A stretch of 64,000 bases of DNA from Halomicrobium urmianum (GTDB lineage Archaea > Halobacteriota > Halobacteria > Halobacteriales > Haloarculaceae). The stretch spans positions 186,001 through 250,000 of the forward strand of contig NZ_CP084090.1 in NCBI RefSeq assembly GCF_020217425.1. Reading direction: 5' to 3'. A program made the translations under genes and the position numbers. Positions 1,168-14,016 of the stretch are shown one piece after another; the stretch's first letter is position 1; the number at the start of each line of letters is the position of its first letter. A model generated the notes under the pieces. That model was not told where the DNA came from and did no database searches. It was given only the letters and a program-made list of their open reading frames with translations.

Positions 1168-3168
1168 TCACTCCCCGTAGATCCGATCCAGCGCGTCGGC
1201 GTGCTCCCCCCGAATCGCCCCGCGGCGCTTCTTCAGCGACGGCGTGAGCAGGCCGTTCTCCGGAGTCCACGGGCCGGCGACGAGGGCGAACTCGCGGACC
1301 TTCGCCGGCCGGTCGAGGTCGGCGTTGACGTCGGCGACTGCCTCGCCGACCCACTCGCGGACGCGCTCGTCGCGACACAGCGCCGCGCGGTCGTCGGGCA
1401 GGGCCAGCCCCTCGCGCTCGCCCCACCGCCGGGCCGCCGCGGCGTTGGGGACGATCAGCGCGCCGACGCTGCTGCGGCCGTCGCCGACGAGCATGGTCTG
1501 GTCGATCCGGTCGCTCGTCGCGAGCGCGTCCTCGACCGGCCGGGGTGCGACGTTCTTCCCCGTCGAGAGCACGAGCAGGTCGGTCAGTCGGTCGTGGAAG
1601 ACCAGGTAGTCGTCCGCGGTCCGCTCGATGAGGTCGCCCGTGTGGAGCCAGGCGCCGCCATCGTTCCCCTCTGAATCACGGCTGGCCGGCCCGCCGTCGG
1701 ACTCGACGGTCGCCGCGACGGCTGGAGCCTCGTCGGTGAACGCCTCGGCTGTGGCCTCCGGGCGGTTCCAGTAGCCGTCGGTGACGTTCGGGCCGCGGAC
1801 GAGCAGCTCGCCCACCTCGCCGTCGGCGTCGAAGTCGTCGGCGTCGACGACCGACGCGTCGATCCGGACGTCGACACCGGGGACCGGCGGCCCCAGCGTC
1901 CCCGGGCGGACGTCGTCGGGCGGGTTGACCGAGACGACCGGGGACGCCTCGGTGAGGCCGTACCCCTCCAGAATCGGCACGCCCATCCCGACGTAGGTCT
2001 CGCAGAGGGCTTTCGGGAGGCTCCCGCCGCCGCTGATCATGAACTCGAGGTCGCCGCCCAGCGCCTCGCGCACGTCGCCGTAGACCAGGCGGTCGGCGAC
2101 GGCGCGGCGGGCCCGCAGCCACGGCCCGGGGTCGTCGGCTCGCGCCCACTCGCGGGCGACGTCGACCGCCCACGAGAAGACCCGCTCGCCCAGCGGCGAC
2201 TCGCCGGCCCGCTCGCGCATCCCGTCCAAGAGGCGCTCGTAGAGGCGGGGGACGCTCGCGCCGGCGTTCGGTCGGATCGCGGCGAGGTCGTCGGCGAACG
2301 TCGCCGGCGACTCCGCGTAGCCCACCGTCGCGCCGGCACCGAACATCAGGAAGTGACCCACGAGGCGCTCGAAGACGTGCGCCAGCGGCAGAACGGAGAT
2401 CGTCGTCGTGTCGGCCGAGAGCGCAGGGGTGTCAGGACCGCGGTCGGCGTCGGGCCCGAGTCGGCGGTACATCTGGTCGACGTTGGCCCGGAAGTTGCGG
2501 TGCGTGAGCCGCACGCCCTTGGGCTCGCCCGTCGTCCCCGACGTGTACACGAGGCTGGCCAGGTCCGAGGGGTCCCGCTCCGCGAGCCAGGACTGGTAGG
2601 TCGCCTCGTCGTAGGCCGCCTCGCCGCGCTCGTAGACGTCCGCCAGCGTCCTCTCGTCTCCGTCGACGTCGTCCATCGCCACGGCGAGCTCGACCGGCAG
2701 GTCGTCCTCGACCGCGCGGACCCGCTCCAGCTGCTCGGCGCCGCCGACCACGACGCCGCTCGCGCCGGGATCGGCCAGCAGGTGTCGCACCTGCTCCGTC
2801 GAGGCGCCCGTGTAGACGGTCGTCACGACCGCGCCGGCGGCCAGCAGGGCGAAGTCGGTCAGCGCCCACTCCATGCGTGTGTCCGCGTAGATAGCCATCC
2901 GGTCACCGGGCTCGACGCCCAGGTCGCGGAAGCCGGCCGCCAGCCGGCGGACGACCGACCGCGCATCCTCGTAGGTGAGCGCCCCGTACTCGCCCCGGAG
3001 CGGCCGCTCGATCGCGGTCCCGGTCAGCGAGCGACCGCCGACGCCCTTGTACAGCTGCGCGGCGCGGCCGGCCGCCCGGTCAGCGCTCGCCTCGAACAGC
3101 TCCGGAATCGTCCCGTCGGGGGCCGCGGGCGCGCCCTCGCCCTGGTCGCTGGGCTCGGCATCTGACAT
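1168..3168 (-). CDS. Long-chain fatty acid--CoA ligase (AMP-dependent synthetase)
   Basis: This 666-residue enzyme is predicted to activate fatty acids with ATP and CoA through an acyl-adenylate. The P-loop signature YTSGTTGEPKGVRLTHRN is near residue 208, and the downstream adenylation motifs GYGLTEASP and WLHTGDL are intact, followed by the usual C-terminal lid domain. Length fits the FACS subgroup of adenylate-forming enzymes. The ATG at 3168 lies 26 bases from a TATA-like box on the same strand, consistent with a leaderless mRNA. Substrate chain length cannot be read from sequence. Haloarchaea lack fatty-acid membrane lipids, so a role in uptake and beta-oxidation is likelier than membrane synthesis. 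Confidence 0.93.
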   Translation of the reverse strand: MSDAEPSDQGEGAPAAPDGTIPELFEASADRAAGRAAQLYKGVGGRSLTGTAIERPLRGEYGALTYEDARSVVRRLAAGFRDLGVEPGDRMAIYADTRMEWALTDFALLAAGAVVTTVYTGASTEQVRHLLADPGASGVVVGGAEQLERVRAVEDDLPVELAVAMDDVDGDERTLADVYERGEAAYDEATYQSWLAERDPSDLASLVYTSGTTGEPKGVRLTHRNFRANVDQMYRRLGPDADRGPDTPALSADTTTISVLPLAHVFERLVGHFLMFGAGATVGYAESPATFADDLAAIRPNAGASVPRLYERLLDGMRERAGESPLGERVFSWAVDVAREWARADDPGPWLRARRAVADRLVYGDVREALGGDLEFMISGGGSLPKALCETYVGMGVPILEGYGLTEASPVVSVNPPDDVRPGTLGPPVPGVDVRIDASVVDADDFDADGEVGELLVRGPNVTDGYWNRPEATAEAFTDEAPAVAATVESDGGPASRDSEGNDGGAWLHTGDLIERTADDYLVFHDRLTDLLVLSTGKNVAPRPVEDALATSDRIDQTMLVGDGRSSVGALIVPNAAAARRWGEREGLALPDDRAALCRDERVREWVGEAVADVNADLDRPAKVREFALVAGPWTPENGLLTPSLKKRRGAIRGEHADALDRIYGE

Positions 3169-3271: not shown

Positions 3272-3432
3272 CGACAGACTCGCTGTGCTCGTCTGTCGAG
3301 CCTGGCCTCACACAGTTCGGCCGGACGCCGGGAGACTCCCGCTGGTCGTCTCCCGAGCCCTGACTCGCTACGCTCGTCAGGACGCCGCTGGAGCACAGCT
3401 CCAGCGAGCCCACGCTCGCTACGCTCGCGTGG
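3272..3432. repeat. Tandem cluster of five hairpins, four with 11-nt loops
   Basis: Five perfect inverted repeats lie head to tail in the 317-bp gap between two divergent genes: 3272-3298 (8-bp stem), 3329-3355 (8 bp), 3359-3381 (6 bp), 3386-3406 (9 bp, 3-nt loop) and 3410-3432 (6 bp). Loops one, three and five are TCGCTGTGCTC, TCGCTACGCTC and TCGCTACGCTC; loop two is a diverged 11-mer. The stems are unrelated to each other. I see no coding capacity in the gap. The cluster ends 53 bases before the EamA start, so it may lie in that gene's leader. Confidence 0.9.
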
Positions 3433-3485
3433 ACGCCAGCAGATTCAACAGTCGGTGCTCCCTCCAACGAACGGGAGCGATCAGT

Positions 3486-4376
3486 ATGTCGGCGACGTCG
3501 ATCGGAATCGGGCTCGCGACGGTCGCGACGGTCGCGGTGGCGATCCAGAGCCTCGCGGTCCGGCTCGGGACGCGGACGCGGACGGTCACCGACGTCGTCG
3601 CCGTCATCTTCGCGATTAACCTGGCGGTGCTGGTCCCGGCGACGACGATTCTCTACGGCGACGACCTCGGGCTCACGCCGATGTCGACCGCCGCCTTCGC
3701 CGCCGGAGGCATCCTGGGGTCGCTGCTGGCCCGGTTCGCGCTCTTCGTCGGAATCGAGCGGCTGGGCGCCAGCAGGGCGGAGCCGCTGAAGTCGACGTTC
3801 CCGCTGGTGGCCGTCGTCGGCGCCGTCGTCTGGCTCCGGGAGTCGCTGACGCCGTCGCTGATCGCCGGCGTCGCCCTCCTCGTCGGCGGCGCCGTGGCGG
3901 TGTCCTGGGACGCCCGCGCGAGCCCCGCGACCGCGGCCGGACGACGGGCGCTGGCCGACCTCCGCTTCCCGCTGGCCGCGGCCCTGGTGCTGGGGATCGA
4001 CCCCATCTTCACCGCGGTCGGGCTCGGTGCGGGGACGCCGTCGCTCGTCGGCGTGACCGTCCGCGTCCTCGCGGCGGCCGCCGCGTTCGGGCTCTACCTC
4101 GGCTGGCGCCGGCTCCGCAGCGGGCGACGCCTCCGGGTCGGCCGCAATCGGTGGCTCGCCCTCGCCGGGCTGGCCAACACGGTGTACCTCGGGGCGTACC
4201 TCGCCGCGCTCGACCGGGCGCCCGTCTCCGTGGTCGCGCCGATTCTCGGGGCGAGTCCGCTGGTCGTCCTCGTCGGATCGGCCCTCTTCGTCCAGAGCGA
4301 GGAGCGGGTGACCGTCCGGCTGGGCGCGGCGGTCGCCGTGCTCGTCGTGGGCGTCGTCCTCGTCCTGCGCGGATAG
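3486..4376 (+). CDS. EamA/DMT-superfamily transporter
   Basis: This 296-residue integral membrane protein carries about ten hydrophobic segments in two similar five-helix halves, the layout of the drug/metabolite transporter superfamily. The first half includes a long run around residues 55-75 and the motif FALFVGIERLGASRAEPLKS. The second half ends in PVSVVAPILGASPLVVLVGS. Both match EamA domains. The frame is open upstream to 3192, but that part is the hairpin cluster, and the hydrophobic protein starts cleanly at the ATG at 3486. The transported compound is unknown; relatives export amino acids or metabolites. Confidence 0.88.
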   Translation: MSATSIGIGLATVATVAVAIQSLAVRLGTRTRTVTDVVAVIFAINLAVLVPATTILYGDDLGLTPMSTAAFAAGGILGSLLARFALFVGIERLGASRAEPLKSTFPLVAVVGAVVWLRESLTPSLIAGVALLVGGAVAVSWDARASPATAAGRRALADLRFPLAAALVLGIDPIFTAVGLGAGTPSLVGVTVRVLAAAAAFGLYLGWRRLRSGRRLRVGRNRWLALAGLANTVYLGAYLAALDRAPVSVVAPILGASPLVVLVGSALFVQSEERVTVRLGAAVAVLVVGVVLVLRG

Positions 4377-4555
4377 GGGAGTCCGCCCCGTTCGCGAGGG
4401 GACCGGCGACGGCCCACGGGGCGTGGACCCACGTCGCGTAAACTGCGCTATGGTCGGAGCCGTCCGGCTTCCCGTCGCGCACGCGGACGAACGCCAGCGG
4501 TGATGCAGCAGAACGGCGCCGGGGGCGACGGAGACGAGGGAGGACGGCGACGCAC

Positions 4556-4861
4556 TCAGAACTCGGGCAACTCGCCGAAGTTGTCGGCGGCCGTTTCGGT
4601 GCCGTCGGTCCTGAGGTAGGGGTCGTCGCCGGCGTTCACGAGGGTCACGTCGCCGCCGCGATGGAACCGGTCCTCGCGTTCGATTGCCGTACAGTAGTCG
4701 TACCCGAGGCGGATCAACTCGATCGCGGCGGATCGGTCGACAGTCGCCGGTGGCGAGAGCCGCTCGCCGTCGTCGGTGTGGCGCCGCAGCGCGGCGACGT
4801 GGTCGCCGTCATCGGCGTAGCGGACGCCGGTGATCACGAAGTCGGCCCAGGTCCCGGTCAT
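4556..4861 (-). CDS. DUF3892-like small protein, last gene of the four-gene operon
   Basis: This 101-residue acidic protein has the DUF3892 layout: an N-terminal ADFVITGVRYADDGDHVAAL strand pair, a central helix with AAIELIRLGYDYCTAI, and a C-terminal YLRTDGTETAADNFGELPEF. Its ATG overlaps the stop of the preceding 916-codon gene in an ATGA junction, so translation is probably coupled. DUF3892 proteins have no established biochemical role. The gene closes an operon that starts at 12906. Confidence 0.75.
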   Translation of the reverse strand: MTGTWADFVITGVRYADDGDHVAALRRHTDDGERLSPPATVDRSAAIELIRLGYDYCTAIEREDRFHRGGDVTLVNAGDDPYLRTDGTETAADNFGELPEF

Positions 4862-7608
4862 CGGTCCAGCAGTCCCTCCAGTCGCTCCAGCAACTGCGCT
4901 CGCTCTTTGGGGCCGACGGTCGTCTCACCGTCAGACGTCGCCGCCGCGCGCTCGGCCTCGACGCCCACTGTGTCCGTGAAGCCGAACAGACCCTTCGTCG
5001 AGTGGCCCCCGACGGCACCGACGAGGCGCTCGCTGCTGTCCATCCCCATCGCGGCGGCGGCGGACCCGTCGCCGATCTGGAAGATCGTGGTCGTCTCTCG
5101 GCCGGCCCCGCCGTCGCTGACCGCCTGCCCGCCGCTCCGCCCGGGTGCGATTCCGGATCGGGTCTCGCTGAACCCGCGGACGTCGACGCCCGTTCCGGGC
5201 CCGCCCGTGGGGTGGCCGTAGTCCGGCGCGGTCAGCGCGTCGATCATGTCCACGACGACCTGCTCGGCGCCGACGGGCGGCGCCTGGCCGCGCGCCTCGC
5301 GCGGGACCTGTCGGGCGACGGCGGCGACGCTCTCCGGGCCCATCGGACAGACGGTCCCGAGGAAGGCGCCGAACGTGCCGCCGGAGTCGGCGGCGAGGCT
5401 GGCCGACTCCCTGTGAGGGCTGGGGTCGGTGTACCCGCCGCCGCGACAGCCGCCACTCATGCCGTCGATGCGGCCGAACGGGAGGCGACCGCCCCGCTCG
5501 CGGCCCTCGCCCTCCCCACCTTCGCCCCTGCCCTCGCCGCGGTCGCCCTCTCCGCCTCGCCCCTCGCCGTCGCCGCCCTCCCGCGGCAGTCCGCCGCCGG
5601 ACGGACCCATCGTGCCGCCCCCGCCGCCGTCGGCCGGCGTGGTCCCCGCTTCGCCCGCCCCGCCGGGCTCGCTGTCCCCGCCGTCGCTCCCCTCGCCGTC
5701 GGTGCCACCGTCCGATCCGCCGCTCGGTTCCTCCCCGCCGGAGCCGGGCTGTCCGTCGCCGCCCGACTCGCCGTCTCCAGTGGATTCCCCGTCGCCGGTC
5801 GACTCGCCGTCCCCCGTCGATTCCCCGTCGCCGGTCGACTCTCCGTCGCCGGACGTTGGGTCGCTCGCCGGGTCCTCTTCGTACTGCTCTTCCTGTGACT
5901 CACCGGCCGACTCGCCCCTGTCCTCGTAGACGAAGACGATCTTGCCGGGCGTGTTCTCGTCCTCCGTGTTGTTGACGTGGACGCGCCGGTCGGCGTCGCC
6001 CGACGGGTTCTCGTCGACCCGCTCCACGTGACCGCTCGGCGTCGAGTCGCCGGGCTGGGCCTCGCCCCAGTCGGTCGTGCCGCCGCCCTCGCTCTGGCGC
6101 GCGCCGTCGTTCATCATCCGCCCGCGTCCGGTCCCGCGGTCGAACCCCAGCGTGAAGCCGCCGCCGTCGGAGAGCATCCCCGAGACGGGGACGCGGCCAC
6201 CGCCGGACTCGAACTGCCGGCCGCGCTCGCCGCCGAAGCCGAAGCCGCCGGGGCCGAGTCCCCGTCCGCGGTCGGGTCCGATTCCGCGCCTGCCGTCAGC
6301 GCCGACCCCGCGCCTGCCGTCGCCGGCGCGACCGGGGCGATCCCGACCGAACCCGAGCATGTCGACGTACTGGCGGTACACGCCGAGGCCCGCGTCGGCG
6401 AAGCGGGTGCTGAGCGTGAAGTTCTGGACGTTGTACCCGAACATGACGCCGGCGCGCTCGCGGCGGGGATCGACGCCCCAGGCGTTCGCGTGATCGCCGA
6501 AGTGGTCGAACAGCGGCGCCACGGTCCGACCGACCCAGCGCTCGAAGACGCCGCCGTCCGCCCAGTCGGGCGGGCCCACGAAGTCGCCGCGGCCGACGTC
6601 CAGGCGCTCCTCGTCGAAGGCCTCGACGACGTCCAGTAGTTCGCGATACACGTCCCCGGGCCTGGCCTCCTCGAGCGACGCGGCGTCGGCGTCGTTGGCC
6701 AGCGCCTCCTTCAGGGCCTCCGCCGACTCAGTAACGGCCTTCTGCTCGCCCAGGTAGTACAGTTCGCCGTCGTATCGGGCGTAGACCCCCTCCTCGATCG
6801 CCCCGTAGTCGAGCGTCGGGGCCTCGAGGATCGACTCCTCCCAGGTTTCGTTCTGCCGGTGGGCGAAGTCGTACGAGGACGGTTCGCCGTCCTCGAACTC
6901 CTCGACGACGGCCTCCCGCCGGTCCGAGAGGTCGACGCGCTCGCTCCCGACGTGGACCGGGAGGACGTACACCTTCCCCCGGAACTTCAGGACGATCAGG
7001 AAGAGCACGTCCTCGTCGGGGTCGAGCAGCGTGTCGCCGCCGACGCCGACGTCGACGACCCGGCGGATCCGCCGGCCGTCGTACTCGAGGACGACCTCGT
7101 GGCGGCCGTACTCGTCGGCCTCGTACTCGAAGACGTCGCCCTCGGCGGCGGCCTCGCCGTCGACCCGCCAGGTCGCCGCGGCGTCGGCCCGCTCGTCGAA
7201 GAACTGCGGCCGTCGGAAGGTCGCCGACTCGCCGCCGCGCAGCCAGAACCGGTACTGGTCGGGCCGGTTCCGGAACCCGCCAGTCCAGCCTTCCCGGGTG
7301 TCGGCGTCCCGCTTCCCCTCGTCGGTCGCTCCGCTCTTCCCCGCCGACTCGTCGGATTTCTCCCGGCCGCCGTCCGCGACGACCCGGACGGCCCGGGCCG
7401 TAACGCCGGAGTGCGACAGCGCTTCCGCGAGCGTCTGTGCCTGCGCTTCGTCGAGACCCGCGGCCAGCACCTGCGCTCCGTCGTCCGCCGCGAGTCCAGT
7501 TCCCTCGCCGTCCGATGCGTCCCGTGCCACGTCCCGTCGCCCCGCACCACCCGTCGATCGGTCCGCGCCGCCTGTCGCGTCTGACACGACGTGATAGGTG
7601 TGCGCCAT
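4858..7608 (-). CDS. Large low-complexity protein with a PKD/Ig-like domain, function unknown
   Basis: I do not recognise this 916-residue protein. Residues 1-80 form a small alpha/beta region (AQVLAAGLDEAQAQTLAEAL). About residues 115-190 look like an Ig or PKD fold, with WRVDG and DEYGRHEVVLEYDGRRI strands. Residues 190-450 are a unique globular part. Residues 450-715 are a disordered Gly/Asp/Glu/Ser linker that includes five DGES units. A C-terminal globular region of 200 residues starts at MSGGCRGGG and holds two Cys. No signal peptide or membrane helix is visible. It overlaps the DUF3892 gene by 4 bases and lies 133 bases after the VWA/NHL gene, so the products probably act together. Confidence 0.75.
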   Translation of the reverse strand: MAHTYHVVSDATGGADRSTGGAGRRDVARDASDGEGTGLAADDGAQVLAAGLDEAQAQTLAEALSHSGVTARAVRVVADGGREKSDESAGKSGATDEGKRDADTREGWTGGFRNRPDQYRFWLRGGESATFRRPQFFDERADAAATWRVDGEAAAEGDVFEYEADEYGRHEVVLEYDGRRIRRVVDVGVGGDTLLDPDEDVLFLIVLKFRGKVYVLPVHVGSERVDLSDRREAVVEEFEDGEPSSYDFAHRQNETWEESILEAPTLDYGAIEEGVYARYDGELYYLGEQKAVTESAEALKEALANDADAASLEEARPGDVYRELLDVVEAFDEERLDVGRGDFVGPPDWADGGVFERWVGRTVAPLFDHFGDHANAWGVDPRRERAGVMFGYNVQNFTLSTRFADAGLGVYRQYVDMLGFGRDRPGRAGDGRRGVGADGRRGIGPDRGRGLGPGGFGFGGERGRQFESGGGRVPVSGMLSDGGGFTLGFDRGTGRGRMMNDGARQSEGGGTTDWGEAQPGDSTPSGHVERVDENPSGDADRRVHVNNTEDENTPGKIVFVYEDRGESAGESQEEQYEEDPASDPTSGDGESTGDGESTGDGESTGDGESTGDGESGGDGQPGSGGEEPSGGSDGGTDGEGSDGGDSEPGGAGEAGTTPADGGGGGTMGPSGGGLPREGGDGEGRGGEGDRGEGRGEGGEGEGRERGGRLPFGRIDGMSGGCRGGGYTDPSPHRESASLAADSGGTFGAFLGTVCPMGPESVAAVARQVPREARGQAPPVGAEQVVVDMIDALTAPDYGHPTGGPGTGVDVRGFSETRSGIAPGRSGGQAVSDGGAGRETTTIFQIGDGSAAAAMGMDSSERLVGAVGGHSTKGLFGFTDTVGVEAERAAATSDGETTVGPKERAQLLERLEGLLDR
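5764..5854 (-). repeat. 18-bp in-frame tandem repeat encoding GDGEST units
   Basis: About five 18-base units run in tandem, encoding repeated Gly-Asp-Gly-Glu-Ser-Thr within the disordered linker of the 916-residue protein. Units differ by silent changes and end in a GDGESGG variant. The array keeps frame, so copy number could vary without breaking the gene. Confidence 0.85.
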
Positions 7609-7741
7609 CGTGTGACGAGCACCGCCGTCGGCGCTCGTTTGGACCTCCCGATGGCCGGGCGATAGTTCTATCTGCCCGGTAGTTCCGGATTGGCGGCCAC
7701 TGCGATTCCTCTCGAAGCACCGACGGCACCGTCACGGACGC

Positions 7742-10700
7742 TCAGCGCTCTCGCGCGCCGTTCGGCGTGCGCTGCGGACCGGTCGGCTCCCGCCGCCCGA
7801 CGCCCGCTCGGAGTTCCGGGAGCGTCCACGAGAGCGTCGCCTCGCGCAGCGACACCGAGACAGTGGGGGAACCGGCTCCCCCGGCGGCGGACTGCCGGAG
7901 TCGCTCGGCGAGGCCCGTTCCGACGCCCGCGACCGACTCGAGACGGTCCGAATCGGCGGCGAGGACGTCCGCGAGCGTCTCGAAGCCTGCCGATCGGAGC
8001 GCCTCCGCCCGCTCCCGCCCGACGTCGTCGACGCGCTCGAAGGCGGCGCCGGCCCGGGCCGCCTCGGCGGGCACGTCCACGCGGAACCGATAGCTCCCGT
8101 CACCGCGGTCGACCACTTCGCCCGCGCTTCCGGCATCGACGGCGACGGAGACCTCGTCCGCGAGGGCCGGACCGAGCAGGTTGTCGACCTGGTCCCGCGG
8201 CGTCACGCGGACCCGCAGCGACTCGGCGTCGCCCACCGATCGCTCGTCGACCACCTCGGCCGTCGTCCGGGCGGGCGAGGGGCGCGAGACCGCCGCGAGC
8301 GTTGCCCGGCACTCGCGAGTGAGCGTCCGGCCCTGGCGCTCGTACTCGACGACCGCGTGAACGTCGTAGGCACCCTCCGCTCGCAACGGGTCGAGATGGG
8401 CGCTCACGGGCGTCTCAGCGCCCTCGCCCGCTTCGACGTCCGGCCGCGTCGTGGTCCGCTCGCGAAACCGGGGGTCTCGCCGCACCGCCTCGGCCAGTTC
8501 GCCGCGGATCCCGTCCGCCGCGTAGTCCTCCGACGGATCCCGGTCCGGGTCGAGTCGGTCGAACGCCGCGTCGTACAGGCGCACCGCCGCGTCAGCGCTG
8601 GCGTCGTCTGCCGCGTCGAGGGCCTCCAGGGACTCGGAGAACGCCGTGCGGTCGACGCGTTCGTCGCCGACGACGGACCCGTCGGGATTCGATCCGTCGC
8701 CAACGCCGTCGTCGGGTCCGTCGCCGTCGTCGACGCCCTCGCCAGCGAGCAGGTCCGCGTACAGCTCCCCGCGGCTGTGGACCGGTCGCTCGACGGCGAC
8801 GTCGACGGCGTCGGGCGCGACCGCGGCCCCCTCCTCCGTCAGTTCGAGGTCGAGGCGCGCCGGGTTCCCCGTCGCGTCCGCGTCGCGGTGGACCGAGCAA
8901 TCGACGCCGAGATCGGAGTCCACGATGACGGACACCCCGGCCGTGATCTGCCGTCCGGGGCTCGATCGATTGCGGACTACGAGCGCCCAGTCGCCCGCGT
9001 GCGCGCCGCCCGCGGCCGCCAGCGGCAGGTCGACGCGGTAGAACTGCGATGTCGCCGTTCCGCCCTGCCGGACGCCCGCGGCGCTCCCGGCGAACGTCGG
9101 ATCCACGAGCGTCCCGTCCGGCGCCCGGAGGCCGACGTCGACACTCGCCTGCGGGTCGTCCCAGTAGGCCGCGAACGTCGCGGCGTGGTCGACCTCGCCC
9201 AGCGTGGCCGCGACGTCCACGCCGTCCCCGGCGTCCACGTCGTACGTCGGGTCGACGGCGACGTACTCCCCGATCGCGTCGGCAAGGATCTCGAGGAAGA
9301 ACTTCTGGAGGCGGAGCCACCGCTCCTCGGTGAGGTGGAACGAGCCGTCCTCTGGCGCCTCCTCGTCGGCGGACTGGCCGGCGAGCTTCGAGAGGACGGG
9401 GAGGTCGACCTCCGATCCGAGGCCCAGGCCGACCGTGTGGACGGCGAATCCCGACAGCGTCGACAGGTCCACGCCGCGCTGCTCGTCGGCGGGCAGGACG
9501 TACGGCGGCTCGTTCTCCATGCCGTCGCTGACGACGACCAGGACTCGCCTGACGTCGTCCCCGTCGCTCCCGAACTCCGAGCGCGCGGTGACGACGCCGT
9601 CGCCGATGGAGGTGGTCCCGCCCGGCGACAGCGAGCGGATCGCGCGCTTCGCCGCACGCCGGGTGTTCCGCGGGGACTCGGTGACCGCCTCGAGCGGGTG
9701 GACGACGGCGGCGCTGTCGTCGAACCCGACGACGGTCAGCTCGTCGCCGACGCCCGCACGCAGCAGGTCCACGAACGTGTCGGCGGCGCGCTGGAGGGCC
9801 GCCATCTTCGACTGGCCGCCCGCCGGCTGGCGCATGCTCCCGGAGCGGTCGAGCACCAGTCCCGCCTCGACCGGCGTCGGTTCGACGCCGCGGCCGAGCA
9901 GGACGACGGACGCCGCGCTTCCGGGGCCGTCGTGATCGATGCGCAGTTCGCCGGACGAGACCGCGACGTCAGTCGGGCCGAAGGCCACCTCGACCCGTTC
10001 GCTGTCGCCGGGCGGCACCGTCGCCGACGCGGTCCGGGCGTCGAAACCGTCACCGGTCGCGGTGACGTTCGTCACCGAGAGCGGCGCGCCGCCGTCGTTG
10101 TGGACGGTCACGGCGGCCCGGAGCGTGTAGCCGACCTCGACGGCGCCGAAATCGAGCGTCGACTCCTCGACGCGCGCACTCGGACCGCCGGCGGCGGCGT
10201 ACTCGTGGACCGCGCCCCGGCTGACGTCGGCGACGTACGCCGATCCGCCGCCGACGGCGATCCCGTGTCCGGCTCCGAACTGGCCGGAGCGGCCGAACGA
10301 CTCGGCGTGGGCGCCGCTCGCGTCGAACTCCTGGACGCGGCGGTTGCCGTCGTCGACGACGTACAGGTGGTCCGACGCGTCGACGGCGAGACCGACCGGA
10401 TCACGGAACTCGCCGTCGCGACTCCCGGTGCCGCCCAGCGGTCCGCTGGACCCGCCGTGGACCGTGACGACGTCCCCGGATCGGTCCGAGACGTACACGG
10501 TGCCCGCACCGTCGACGGCGATGCCGCTCGCGTCGCCCCAGCTCCCGCCGGTGACCGCCTCCGACGCCGATCCCGACGCGCCGTCGACTCGCACGACCCT
10601 GTCGTTCCCGGCGTCGAGGACGTACCAGTCGCCGCCCCGCCACGTCAGCGCGGTCGGGTCGGCGAGCTCGGTCCCCGCAAACGTCCCGCGGGTCCCGCCG

Positions 10701-11032
10701 AGGAACCCACCGTCGTAGCCGTACGCGTCGGCCGCGGCGTCGTAGGAATACCGGTCGAGTTCGACGTTACCGGCGTCGAGGACGACGAGGTTCCCGTCGC
10801 CGTCGACGGCGACGTCCATCGGGACCGACAGTCCCTCGGTCGAGGAGTCCGTCCCGTAGCTACCGATCGTCTCCGTCGTCGGCGACGACGCCGTCGCGTC
10901 GAAGTGGGCGACGTGGTGGCCCGCGCCGTCGGCGATCAGGAGCCTGTCCCGCGGGTCGTCGAAGGCGAGGCCGAACGGGCGCTGCAGGTCGCCCGTCGCG
11001 ACCGTCCGCACGAACGCGTGGGTGGAACTCAT
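7742..11032 (-). CDS. NHL-propeller / VWA / helix-hairpin-helix protein of unknown function
   Basis: This 1096-residue multidomain protein is laid out as follows. Residues 1-285 are NHL-type propeller repeats (recurring DPxGLAVDxxGxLYVVD patterns). About 288-382 is an ASH/choice-of-anchor-D Ig-like domain starting ESTLDFGAVEVGYTL. About 388-570 is a von Willebrand A domain with an intact MIDAS (DRSGSM near 395-400, TTSIGDG near 472). A mixed region with another Ig-like stretch follows, and residues 1000-1050 form a helix-hairpin-helix pair (GFETLADVLAADSDRLESVAG). The ATG at 11032 overlaps the previous stop in ATGA. The frame extends upstream to 11287, but that part is shadow of the neighbouring gene. 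No signal peptide or membrane helix is seen. Confidence 0.85.
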   Translation of the reverse strand: MSSTHAFVRTVATGDLQRPFGLAFDDPRDRLLIADGAGHHVAHFDATASSPTTETIGSYGTDSSTEGLSVPMDVAVDGDGNLVVLDAGNVELDRYSYDAAADAYGYDGGFLGGTRGTFAGTELADPTALTWRGGDWYVLDAGNDRVVRVDGASGSASEAVTGGSWGDASGIAVDGAGTVYVSDRSGDVVTVHGGSSGPLGGTGSRDGEFRDPVGLAVDASDHLYVVDDGNRRVQEFDASGAHAESFGRSGQFGAGHGIAVGGGSAYVADVSRGAVHEYAAAGGPSARVEESTLDFGAVEVGYTLRAAVTVHNDGGAPLSVTNVTATGDGFDARTASATVPPGDSERVEVAFGPTDVAVSSGELRIDHDGPGSAASVVLLGRGVEPTPVEAGLVLDRSGSMRQPAGGQSKMAALQRAADTFVDLLRAGVGDELTVVGFDDSAAVVHPLEAVTESPRNTRRAAKRAIRSLSPGGTTSIGDGVVTARSEFGSDGDDVRRVLVVVSDGMENEPPYVLPADEQRGVDLSTLSGFAVHTVGLGLGSEVDLPVLSKLAGQSADEEAPEDGSFHLTEERWLRLQKFFLEILADAIGEYVAVDPTYDVDAGDGVDVAATLGEVDHAATFAAYWDDPQASVDVGLRAPDGTLVDPTFAGSAAGVRQGGTATSQFYRVDLPLAAAGGAHAGDWALVVRNRSSPGRQITAGVSVIVDSDLGVDCSVHRDADATGNPARLDLELTEEGAAVAPDAVDVAVERPVHSRGELYADLLAGEGVDDGDGPDDGVGDGSNPDGSVVGDERVDRTAFSESLEALDAADDASADAAVRLYDAAFDRLDPDRDPSEDYAADGIRGELAEAVRRDPRFRERTTTRPDVEAGEGAETPVSAHLDPLRAEGAYDVHAVVEYERQGRTLTRECRATLAAVSRPSPARTTAEVVDERSVGDAESLRVRVTPRDQVDNLLGPALADEVSVAVDAGSAGEVVDRGDGSYRFRVDVPAEAARAGAAFERVDDVGRERAEALRSAGFETLADVLAADSDRLESVAGVGTGLAERLRQSAAGGAGSPTVSVSLREATLSWTLPELRAGVGRREPTGPQRTPNGARER

Positions 11033-12906
11033 TGGTAGAGCCAGGATCTGGTCGGGTTGTGACAGCACTGTGCGACGTCGGCCCAGGCCGGACGGAGGGT
11101 GATCGGCGTCTCGACGGTCGCGCTGCCGCCGTTGCTGTTGACGAACTTCGCGACGCCGGCCTGGAGCCCACGCCACAGGACGTCGCCGACCCCGTAGCCT
11201 ATCGACGGGTGGTCGGTGTAGAGAGTCCTGTCCGCGGCGCGCGTGTAGAACGTGTAGGTGCCCCGGTCGTTCTTGAAGATGCCCCACTCCCGGTTGCCGC
11301 TGACGGGGTGGGCCAACACCGGGTAGCCGTCGACCGCGGAGGTGGTGTAGGTCGTCGAGAACCGCCAGTGGGTGGCGTCGTAGGCGGTACAGACCACCGT
11401 GGCGTTATCCGGGCCCGTCAGGTCCAGGAAGATGAAGGCACCGACCGGCGACGAGGAGTGCCAGGTCCAGCGGTGACGCGCGTTCCAGGGGGTGAACGTC
11501 GTCGGGGCGAACGAGATCGCGGAGATCTCCTGCAGGTAATTGATGTTCAGGCGGACGTACTCGACGAGGTCGGACGGCGTGAACGTCTGTCCCTGCACCG
11601 TCGGGAACGCGTCGATCCGGACGGGGTAGTAGTCGAGGTTGACCGGGCCGATGGCGTCCTCGATCGGCTGGAACCGCCCCGACGAGACGTCCGGGTCGTT
11701 GTGCAGGCCTCGCTGGACGGACGCGGGGGGCCGGAAGCTCACGAGGTCCGCCCAGAACTGGAAGGGGTCCAGGTACAGGGCCTTCTCCTCCGTGGTGGAC
11801 GTCGAGTACCCGTCGACCGTCAACAGGCCGAAGTCGCGCGCTCCGACGACGCTGAGGGAGACGTCGTACGGCCCGGGCTCGGTTCGCAGTCCGTCGACGT
11901 CGTAGAGGTGCCAGGTGAACTGGCCTCGTCGCGGCGGCTTCCCGCGCGTGACGTCTTCGTACACCGGCGCGCGACCGGGCCGCTCCAAGTGACGGACCAG
12001 CAGTTCCAGCATGAAGAAGCCGTACTGCTGCTCTAACTCCCGGTAGAGGTCCGGACCGATCTCGTACTCTATTCGGACCCGGTCGTCAGTCGGCCGCTCG
12101 ACGTGGGCCTGGCGGTCGCTCGTCGGAGAGAGCACGCTGACTCCGCCGGCCCCGGCCGACTCGCCGATCGCGATCGTCGCGTCGTCCTCGTCTCGCCCAC
12201 GGTTCCCGTAGTAGGTCGACACGTCGTCGTCGGTGACCTCGAGTTTGAACCGGTAGGTGCCGCGCGCCCCCGGCGGGACCGTCGCGCCCTTCGGGACCGC
12301 CGTCACCCGCGCACCGCTCCCCGTCGAGACCCGCTTCGCCATCGACTGCACGAACCCGCGGTTCGCGCTCCGCGTCAGATCGACGGTGGGGCCGTCGATC
12401 AGGAACCAGCGATAGTTGAGCGACGCCCCGGGGTCCGGGTCCGTCGTCCCGCTGCCGTCGAGTTCAGCCGCCTGCTGCAGCGACCCGTCCGACACCGACA
12501 CCTCGGCGTCCGCCCCGGCGTCCGCCTCGGGGTCGTGGTTGAGCAGGTAAGTGAACACGCGCGACCAGTCCCAGGTCGAGTGGGAGTCGTCCAGCTCGTC
12601 GCCGGCGCCGAACCGGACGTGGAGGCGCCGCTGGTTCGGGTCGCGCGTGAAGCGCTCCCAGACGCGGGGCGGCAACCGGACCCGCGCCACCTCGTAGCGG
12701 GAGTACCCGCTCGCGTCCGCGAGGTCGAGCGGGTAGAAGTTCGCCGCCGAGCGGCCGAACGGCTGGGAGAACAGCGACCTGTCGAGGGCCCACTGAACGG
12801 CGTAGAACAGCGGCGACGGTAGCCGCTCGAACCGCTCACCGCCCTGCACGAGGGAGATGTCCAGTTCCGGCGGTGGCTCGTCGACGTGCCTAATCCAGTC
12901 GGCCAT
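11029..12906 (-). CDS. PKD-domain protein with FlgD-like Ig region, first gene of the four-gene operon
   Basis: This protein has 625 residues from the ATG at 12906; a GTG at 12915 would add three. Residues 1-135 are a unique region (LPSPLFYAVQWALDRSLFSQ). About 140-235 is a PKD domain (ELDGSGTTDPDPGASLNYRW through YRFKLEVTDDD). A stretch near 310-350 (GQFTWHLYDVDGLRTEPGPY) resembles the FlgD Ig-like fold. The C-terminal 200 residues are rich in aromatic residues and end with a CC pair. No signal peptide is present although PKD domains are usually extracellular. The stop overlaps the next start. A possible promoter for the operon lies near 13068-13084. Function is unknown. Confidence 0.82.
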   Translation of the reverse strand: MADWIRHVDEPPPELDISLVQGGERFERLPSPLFYAVQWALDRSLFSQPFGRSAANFYPLDLADASGYSRYEVARVRLPPRVWERFTRDPNQRRLHVRFGAGDELDDSHSTWDWSRVFTYLLNHDPEADAGADAEVSVSDGSLQQAAELDGSGTTDPDPGASLNYRWFLIDGPTVDLTRSANRGFVQSMAKRVSTGSGARVTAVPKGATVPPGARGTYRFKLEVTDDDVSTYYGNRGRDEDDATIAIGESAGAGGVSVLSPTSDRQAHVERPTDDRVRIEYEIGPDLYRELEQQYGFFMLELLVRHLERPGRAPVYEDVTRGKPPRRGQFTWHLYDVDGLRTEPGPYDVSLSVVGARDFGLLTVDGYSTSTTEEKALYLDPFQFWADLVSFRPPASVQRGLHNDPDVSSGRFQPIEDAIGPVNLDYYPVRIDAFPTVQGQTFTPSDLVEYVRLNINYLQEISAISFAPTTFTPWNARHRWTWHSSSPVGAFIFLDLTGPDNATVVCTAYDATHWRFSTTYTTSAVDGYPVLAHPVSGNREWGIFKNDRGTYTFYTRAADRTLYTDHPSIGYGVGDVLWRGLQAGVAKFVNSNGGSATVETPITLRPAWADVAQCCHNPTRSWLYQ

Positions 12907-13135
12907 CGGTCTCACCCGGCCGGTTCTCGTGCTTCCGCGCGGCTACCGCGCCGCGCGTACTCGCTTTCGGTCGCGTCCGCCTCGCCATGGCGTCTTTCGA
13001 ATCGTCGCTCGGGGAGGATAGCGGTTTCAACGACCTGGTGGCGACAGCGCGCCCACATGCGGTGCGTTATCATCTATCTTACTCCCAGCATCGCTGCCAC
13101 TCGGGGAACGCTGGGCGGGCCGCTCCGACCAAGCC

Positions 13136-13145
13136 GCAGCTTTTT
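13136..13145 (+). promoter_or_regulatory. TATA-like box of nop5
   Basis: An A/T-rich AGCTTTTTCG stretch is centred about 30 bases before the ATG at 13171. The 264-bp divergent gap from 12907 to 13170 holds nothing else that I can identify. Confidence 0.45.
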
Positions 13146-13170
13146 CGCCGCGGCCCGGATACGGCCAGGT

Positions 13171-14016
13171 ATGACCGACGAGGCGGGATGGTTTGCCGGG
13201 CTCGACCCCGGAGACGAGACGGCGGCGGCGAGCGCGATACGGGACGGAGCGGCTGACGAACCGGCCGACTGGGCGTCGCTGGCCGTCGAGAGCGGCTTCG
13301 CCGACGACGAGGCCGACTACTACGACCGCCTCAAGGCGGCAACGACGGCCGCGACCCGCGAGGCCGTCCGGGAGCAGGCCGGGGCCGGGGATCAACAGTT
13401 GATCCACGCCGTCCGGGCCGTCGACGACTGCGAGCGGACGGCCAACGAGCTGGCCGAGCGCGTCGCGGAGTGGGCCGAGAGCCTGTACGACGACGCCGGC
13501 GCCGGCGTCGAGTACGCCCGCGAACTCGCCGAGCGAGAGCCGGAGGGCCCCGGCGAGGAGCGCCTCGTCGCGCTGGCGGGGCGGGTCGCGGACCTGGCCG
13601 ACGAGGCCGAGGCGCTACGAGAACGGATCGAGCGGTCCGCGCCGGAGGTGGCCCCGAACCTCTCTGCGCTGGCGGGGCCGGTGCTGGCCGCACGGCTCAT
13701 CTCGCTGGCGGGCGGGCTGGAGTCGCTGGCCAAGAAGCCCAGCGGTACCGTCCAGGTGCTCGGCGCGGAGGAGGCCCTGTTCGCGCACCTCCGGGGGAAC
13801 GCGCCCTCGCCCAAGCACGGGATCATCTACACCCACGAGGCGGTCCGCGGGACCGACCCCGAGCACCGCGGGTCGGCGGCGCGGGCGCTGGCGGGCAAGC
13901 TCTCCATCGCGGCGCGGATTGACCACTACAGCGGCGACCTCCGGCCGGAGCTACAGGACGACCTGGCCGAACGGATCGAGCGCATCCAGTCCCGCTCCGG
14001 GGGTGACGACGCGTGA
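13171..14016 (+). CDS. nop5: Nop5 (NOP56/58-like) box C/D RNP core protein
   Basis: This 281-residue protein scaffolds box C/D small RNPs, linking L7Ae-bound guide RNA to fibrillarin for 2'-O-methylation of rRNA and tRNA. The C-terminal Nop domain is clear: APNLSALAGPVLAARLISLA, then KKPSGTVQVLGAEEALFAHL and the RNA-facing PKHGIIY. A coiled-coil segment of Glu/Arg-rich heptads fills about residues 70-155. The protein is shorter than eukaryotic relatives, as usual for haloarchaea. The ATG at 13171 follows a TATA-like box. The stop overlaps the fibrillarin start (GTGA), giving the conserved nop5-flpA operon whose products form a complex. Confidence 0.95.
   Translation: MTDEAGWFAGLDPGDETAAASAIRDGAADEPADWASLAVESGFADDEADYYDRLKAATTAATREAVREQAGAGDQQLIHAVRAVDDCERTANELAERVAEWAESLYDDAGAGVEYARELAEREPEGPGEERLVALAGRVADLADEAEALRERIERSAPEVAPNLSALAGPVLAARLISLAGGLESLAKKPSGTVQVLGAEEALFAHLRGNAPSPKHGIIYTHEAVRGTDPEHRGSAARALAGKLSIAARIDHYSGDLRPELQDDLAERIERIQSRSGGDDA

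What the first reader, a model, noticed from the sequence alone, without database searches (positions are those of the whole stretch)
4556..12906. Unassigned four-gene operon of NHL, VWA, PKD-like and helix-hairpin-helix proteins
Four minus-strand genes, two junctions of which overlap as ATGA, encode: a PKD/FlgD-like Ig protein; an 1096-residue NHL propeller, ASH, VWA (intact MIDAS) and helix-hairpin-helix protein; a 916-residue protein with an Ig-like domain and a 265-residue Gly/Asp-rich linker; and a DUF3892 protein. These modules normally belong to extracellular adhesion or assembly systems, yet I see no signal peptide, membrane helix or secretion gene. The combination could be a large intracellular scaffold, a cargo of an injection-type machine, or a non-classically exported surface complex.
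Basis: partly seen in the sequence, partly recalled or inferred. Interest (0 to 1): 0.65.

Follow-up and report, generated by a model that had tools for sequence, protein, structure and literature searches.

The report
Inserted archaeal operon of leaderless proteins
A salt-loving archaeon carries a four-gene block, absent from its relatives, whose proteins join modules otherwise found in leaderless bacterial enzymes and exported bacterial proteins; it looks like a recently acquired surface or weapon-like complex, but its function and way out of the cell are unproven.

Summary
The four genes are real, on the minus strand, with two ATGA overlaps; none has a signal peptide or membrane helix. They are not a conserved system. 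P0001 and P0003 relatives are absent from 340 and 193 other haloarchaeal genomes sampled. In six congeners acsA and nop5 are next to each other (two have an hsp20-like gene between); here a transporter and the operon sit there, so it is a lineage-specific insertion.

Two connections emerged. (1) P0002's ASH-VWA-Ig core (MIDAS intact) is a distant member of a widespread module that in bacteria and Haloarcula follows swappable N-terminal domains: tyrosinase, LodA-type oxidase, M14, M64, S8, trypsin-like and matrixin peptidases. Most lack signal peptides. P0002 carries an NHL propeller in front and an HHH domain behind. (2) P0001 ends in a ~220-residue domain with no Pfam or NCBIfam name (HPxxGxRxxG...FxT), also found in Bacteroidota lipoproteins, a bacterial signal-peptide protein, and a protein just downstream of hcp in an Azospirillum type VI secretion cluster.

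Best reading: a laterally acquired, exported or effector-like complex without a classical signal. Its mechanism is inferred. The host has no detectable phage-type sheath, so injection by its own machine is unsupported. P0003 stays unexplained.

The parts
11029..12906 (-). P0001, 625 aa: unknown N-terminal region, PKD-like domain, probable second Ig domain, C-terminal HPxxGxR domain
12142..12540 (-). PKD-like region of P0001 (about residues 123-255)
   Evidence: Pfam PF22352 3.6e-6, PF18911 8.6e-4
11032..11709 (-). P0001 residues 400-625: HPxxGxR domain without a Pfam/NCBIfam name, shared with Bacteroidota lipoproteins, a signal-peptide protein of Pseudomonadota and a T6SS-cluster protein
7742..11032 (-). 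P0002, 1096 aa: NHL propeller, ASH-like Ig, VWA with intact MIDAS, Ig region(s), helix-hairpin-helix
10193..11032 (-). NHL beta-propeller of P0002 (residues 1-280)
   Evidence: PF01436 9.5e-13; PDB NHL/Pizza/TRIM71 matches down to 4.6e-25
9875..10192 (-). ASH / choice-of-anchor-D Ig domain of P0002 (residues 281-386)
   Evidence: PF22544 1.6e-9, NF012200 1.1e-13
9251..9874 (-). VWA domain of P0002, MIDAS D395-S397-S399/T474/D503
   Evidence: PF13519 1.1e-13; positions
8873..9250 (-). Ig-like region after VWA (about residues 595-720), shared with the enzyme-linked VWA proteins
7889..8050 (-). Helix-hairpin-helix of P0002 (about residues 995-1048), closest to that of haloarchaeal ribosomal protein L32e
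   Evidence: PF14520 2e-9, NF009401 1.8e-8, PDB 1s72_Y
4858..7608 (-). P0003, 916 aa, no recognised domain and no relative found
5404..6321 (-). Gly/Asp/Ser/Glu-rich low-complexity part of P0003 (about residues 430-735)
4556..4861 (-). P0004, 101 aa, DUF3892-like; closest relatives on haloarchaeal plasmids
3477..4376 (+). EamA-like transporter inside the same inserted interval, membership in the operon's function doubtful

Best explanation
A strain-specific, laterally acquired cassette that makes a set of large proteins built to act outside the cell or in another cell, without a classical signal peptide. P0002 is proposed to be the binding and display component: its VWA/ASH/Ig core, the same core that follows various leaderless oxidases and peptidases in other microbes, holds a metal-dependent (MIDAS) ligand contact, and the NHL propeller in front replaces the usual enzyme with a second binding surface. 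P0001 is proposed to carry the working domain at its C-terminus (HPxxGxR domain), held on PKD/Ig spacers. P0003 is a long flexible linker-type partner and P0004 a small mobile-element-associated accessory protein. Shown: gene structure, domains, insertion in conserved synteny, homology of the P0002 core and of the P0001 C-domain, absence of signal peptides. Inferred: that the four proteins act together, that they leave the cell, and what they bind or do.
For: Insertion: nop5 and acsA are divergent neighbours in six congeners and in G009, directly adjacent in G001-G004 and G009, with one hsp20-like gene (read by eye) between them in G005/G006; in G000 EamA plus the four genes fill the interval. 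Core homology: P0002 vs Haloarcula tyrosinase-VWA protein 29% over 547 aa, 5e-27; vs Caballeronia M14-VWA 31% over 347 aa, 4e-23; those two 34% over 619 aa, 1e-100. Same core behind LodA, tyrosinase, M14, M64, S8, trypsin-like, M10; first MIDAS motif (DxSGSM) intact in all 25 checked, and about 20 of 25 lack a hydrophobic N-terminus. P0001 C-domain matches an exported Bacteroidota lipoprotein (2e-24), a signal-peptide protein (1e-17) and the Azospirillum protein 42 bp downstream of hcp (3.9e-9). P0001 is less acidic (D+E 13%, pI 5.1) and has lower GC1 than its neighbours, as expected for a newer arrival. P0004 relatives lie on haloarchaeal plasmids.
Against: No export route was found: no signal peptide, no adjacent secretion genes, no phage-type sheath in the genome. 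P0002 lacks the enzyme domain and the C-terminal helical tail common in the core's relatives and sits on a long branch of their tree. The core's relatives share no neighbour genes except a LodB-type flavoprotein (identity from operon position), and none carries P0001 or P0003 relatives. The T6SS link is a single locus; another close relative (L155) sits among housekeeping genes. HHH domains usually bind nucleic acid, which points inward, not outward.
Confidence: 0.35

Rival explanations
1. Intracellular scaffold or signalling complex: the VWA/ASH/NHL/PKD modules serve as protein-interaction domains in the cytoplasm, and HHH tethers P0002 to DNA or ribosomal RNA.
For: No signal peptide or membrane helix in any of the four; HHH_5 is closest to that of ribosomal protein L32e; acidic, soluble proteins.
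Against: P0001's C-domain is exported in at least two other settings (lipoprotein L134, signal-peptide protein in L152/L156); the P0002 core follows enzymes such as LodA and tyrosinase, for which competition or extracellular roles are described (PMC4417212).
Confidence: 0.3
2. Cargo of a contractile injection or T6SS-like machine, with the P0001 C-domain as an effector domain.
For: The Azospirillum member follows hcp directly inside a T6SS cluster; haloarchaea are known to have functional T6SS-like systems (PMC11566945); leaderless proteins.
Against: No Phage_sheath_1 match in this genome at E<=1 while the same search rings in 7 of 14 controls; no immunity gene recognisable; the Azospirillum protein also has no immunity gene beside it; no relative in phages or viral contigs.
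Confidence: 0.12
3. An ordinary accessory gene island of large multidomain proteins with no common function, possibly decaying or of marginal use, in which adjacency reflects only transcriptional read-through after insertion.
For: Found in one genome only; no co-occurrence of the families elsewhere.
Against: All four frames are intact over 8.3 kb with typical GC3 of 0.90-0.92, and two junctions overlap by ATGA, as in translationally coupled genes.
Confidence: 0.2

Closest known systems
Haloarcula sp. JP-L23 tyrosinase-VWA protein (QIO24726.1) and relatives with LodA, M14, M64, S8, trypsin-like or matrixin N-terminal domains
   Same: ASH-like Ig, VWA with full MIDAS and following Ig in the same order; mostly no signal peptide; sporadic distribution across phyla
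   Different: They carry an enzyme in front and often a short C-terminal helical tail with CLL...GIDL...ECL; P0002 has an NHL propeller in front and HHH behind, and the core is only about 30% identical
LodA-like quinoproteins with a VWA domain (two actinobacterial cases noted in PMC4417212)
   Same: VWA in a leaderless oxidase family; the present scan finds five LodA-VWA proteins sharing the P0002 core
   Different: No oxidase domain and no LodB partner in this operon
Azospirillum argentinense WP_144243666.1, 216 aa, next to hcp in a T6SS cluster
   Same: Homology with P0001 residues 411-599 (3.9e-9) over nearly the whole Azospirillum protein
   Different: Stand-alone, no PKD/Ig spacers; host has a T6SS
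Bacteroidota lipoprotein in G289 (L134:9356-11215, 620 aa)
   Same: C-terminal HPxxGxR domain (2e-24 to P0001)
   Different: Lipoprotein signal and different N-terminal part; no VWA partner
Haloarchaeal T6SS-like contractile injection systems (Halogeometricum borinquense, PMC11566945)
   Same: Haloarchaeal context and leaderless cargo as an idea
   Different: No phage sheath detected in this genome; no DUF4157 domain in these proteins

Membership tests
ASH-VWA-Ig core family (enzyme-linked, leaderless) | ASH-like Ig, then VWA, then Ig, alignable over the core | tested here: met
   29-31% identity over 347-547 aa, E 5e-27 and 4e-23
ASH-VWA-Ig core family (enzyme-linked, leaderless) | Intact MIDAS (DxSxS, T, D) | tested here: met
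   D395, S397, S399, T474, D503
ASH-VWA-Ig core family (enzyme-linked, leaderless) | N-terminal catalytic domain | tested here: not met
   NHL propeller instead
ASH-VWA-Ig core family (enzyme-linked, leaderless) | C-terminal helical tail CLL...GID...ECL | tested here: not met
   HHH domain instead; tail seen by eye in roughly half of 25 relatives
HPxxGxR domain family (defined here) | Residues invariant in seven members (G, H, P, G, R, G, G, F, T, R, W) | tested here: met
   Alignment A4; P0001 residues 527-578
T6SS / contractile injection system | Sheath gene in the genome | tested here: not met
   PF04984: none at E<=1, controls ring in 7 of 14
T6SS / contractile injection system | Tube, baseplate and spike genes nearby or in genome | not tested
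Sec/Tat-exported haloarchaeal surface protein | Signal peptide or membrane anchor | tested here: not met
   No hydrophobic N-terminus or helix in P0001-P0004
DUF3892 (P0004) | Pfam PF13031 above cut-off | tested here: inconclusive
   18.3 bits against 22.3, but 44-45% identity to annotated members

The most novel reading that the evidence does not exclude
The ASH-VWA-Ig core is a general carrier that displays or delivers whatever domain is fused in front of it, without a signal peptide, across bacteria and archaea; this operon is an archaeal version in which an NHL propeller replaces the enzyme and a partner protein brings an unnamed effector domain that bacteria also place in a T6SS cluster.
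Probability: 0.13. Interest if true: 0.8.

Novelty: new variant of a known kind. Interest (0 to 1): 0.45.

Why it matters
It links a one-genome archaeal curiosity to two wider patterns. One core is reused behind at least seven kinds of oxidase or peptidase domain, mostly in leaderless proteins; the papers searched here noted it only for two LodA proteins. The other is a conserved domain without a Pfam or NCBIfam name that appears in exported proteins and in one T6SS cluster. Either could reveal an export or display route for proteins without signal peptides.

Tried and rejected
P0003: no relatives in plasmids, viral contigs, 193 other haloarchaeal or 247 Bacteroidota genomes (the one E 3.7e-4 match in G211 is to the low-complexity linker). 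P0001 C-domain: none in Actinomycetota, phages (48) or viral contigs (67, 103). A Kribbella match (E 0.006, L124) is a chance hit in an extracellular repeat protein and L136 is probably chance. Phage origin: PHROGs gave only generic domain matches and one P0004 family of unknown function. Anti-phage defence: no PADLOC match. Conserved partner genes of the VWA core: only a LodB-type protein recurs. Boundary repeats or a tRNA marking an integrative element: none convincing.

Full report
Observation. P0001-P0002 and P0003-P0004 overlap as ATGA; 133 bp separate P0002 and P0003. Pfam confirms PKD in P0001 and NHL, ASH-type Ig, VWA and HHH in P0002; P0003 has no match, and P0004 is a below-threshold DUF3892 protein that is nevertheless 44-45% identical to DUF3892-annotated proteins of haloarchaeal plasmids. 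None has a signal peptide or membrane helix, and no alternative start supplies one.

Not a conserved system. P0001 as a whole rings in no other of 97 related genomes, except a PKD fragment in G054, and a profile of its C-domain rings in none of 340 other haloarchaeal genomes. P0003 rings in none of 193 others except a weak match to its low-complexity part. The P0001 C-domain is also absent from the 34 genomes reached through loci that hold a VWA relative (the one weak hit there is chance).

Insertion. In six congeners and in a genome of another genus, nop5 stands divergent to and beside acsA; they are directly adjacent in G001-G004 and G009, and only an hsp20-like gene (read by eye) lies between them in G005 and G006. 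In this genome an EamA transporter gene and the operon occupy that interval. P0001 is less acidic and has lower GC1 than its neighbours, and P0004's nearest relatives are on haloarchaeal plasmids beside ArdC-like and DUF6610 genes. No boundary repeats or tRNA mark an integrative element.

P0002's relatives. tblastn against plasmids led to a Haloarcula protein that proved to be a tyrosinase followed by ASH-like Ig, VWA, Ig and a short helical tail, and to a Caballeronia protein with an M14 carboxypeptidase in front of the same core. A scan of genome contigs with the three-member alignment and Pfam scans found the core behind LodA (five, one of them by its N-terminal sequence only), tyrosinase, M14, M64 (two), S8, trypsin-like and matrixin domains, in Actinomycetota, Pseudomonadota, Bacteroidota, Planctomycetota, Myxococcota and Haloarcula. 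The DxSGSM part of the MIDAS is intact in all 25 checked and about 20 have no hydrophobic N-terminus. In a tree of the core P0002 is a long branch outside the main enzyme-linked group. Apart from a LodB-type protein no neighbour gene recurs. A 2015 survey (PMC4417212) noted VWA in two LodA proteins; I found no paper describing the shared core across the other enzymes in the library searched.

P0001's C-domain. Residues 400-625 match proteins in 3 of 247 Bacteroidota genomes strongly and 2 of 364 Pseudomonadota, plus an Azospirillum plasmid protein. Eleven residues are invariant in seven members. Neither Pfam, NCBIfam nor the PDB sequences know it. Settings: a lipoprotein (L134), a signal-peptide protein (L152/L156) near large unannotated exported proteins and apparent mobilisation genes, a stand-alone protein among housekeeping genes (L155), and a protein 42 bp downstream of hcp within a T6SS cluster. 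Exported or delivered function is therefore likely in several hosts but not in all shown.

Reading. I commit, at 0.35, to an acquired, exported or effector-like complex in which P0002 binds through MIDAS and propeller and P0001 carries the working domain. What is shown ends at sequence, homology, synteny and absence of signals; partnership, export and activity are inferred. The intracellular-scaffold rival is nearly as likely (0.30). Injection by an own machine is not supported: no phage-type sheath was found, although tube and baseplate genes were not searched.

Limits.

Noticed in passing
L148:11986-12636 (Azospirillum argentinense plasmid): Unannotated 216-aa protein directly downstream of hcp in a T6SS cluster belongs to the HPxxGxR domain family; candidate effector or accessory with no visible immunity gene.
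   Followed up: partly
L156:1830-10498: Beside the signal-peptide HPxxGxR protein lie apparently exported proteins of 287, 1355 and 1241 aa with no Pfam match, next to what look like mobilisation genes.
   Followed up: partly
L056:619-3786 and 4296-7241: Two members of the ASH-VWA-Ig core family, one with a trypsin-like domain, stand back to back in an actinobacterial contig.
   Followed up: no
L003:10798-10998 and L123:10619-10873: A small leaderless protein of 66-84 aa precedes the tyrosinase-VWA gene in Haloarcula and in Microvirga; possible tyrosinase partner.
   Followed up: no
L123:21964-25014: A HYD1-signature ADP-ribosyltransferase family protein lies about 8 kb from the Microvirga tyrosinase-VWA gene.
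   Followed up: no
window 1168-3168: acsA is only 56-59% identical to the syntenic acsA of congeners while nop5, flpA and gshA are 73-79%; it may have been replaced together with the insertion.
   Followed up: no
window 3297-3437: Short diverged direct repeats of about 33 nt (CGAGCCCTGACTCGCTACGCTCGTCAGGACGCC type) with internal palindromes upstream of the EamA gene.
   Followed up: no
L140 about 4990-5440; L141 about 12980-13440: G005 and G006 carry an hsp20-like gene between nop5 and acsA, so this junction has accepted inserts more than once.
   Followed up: partly
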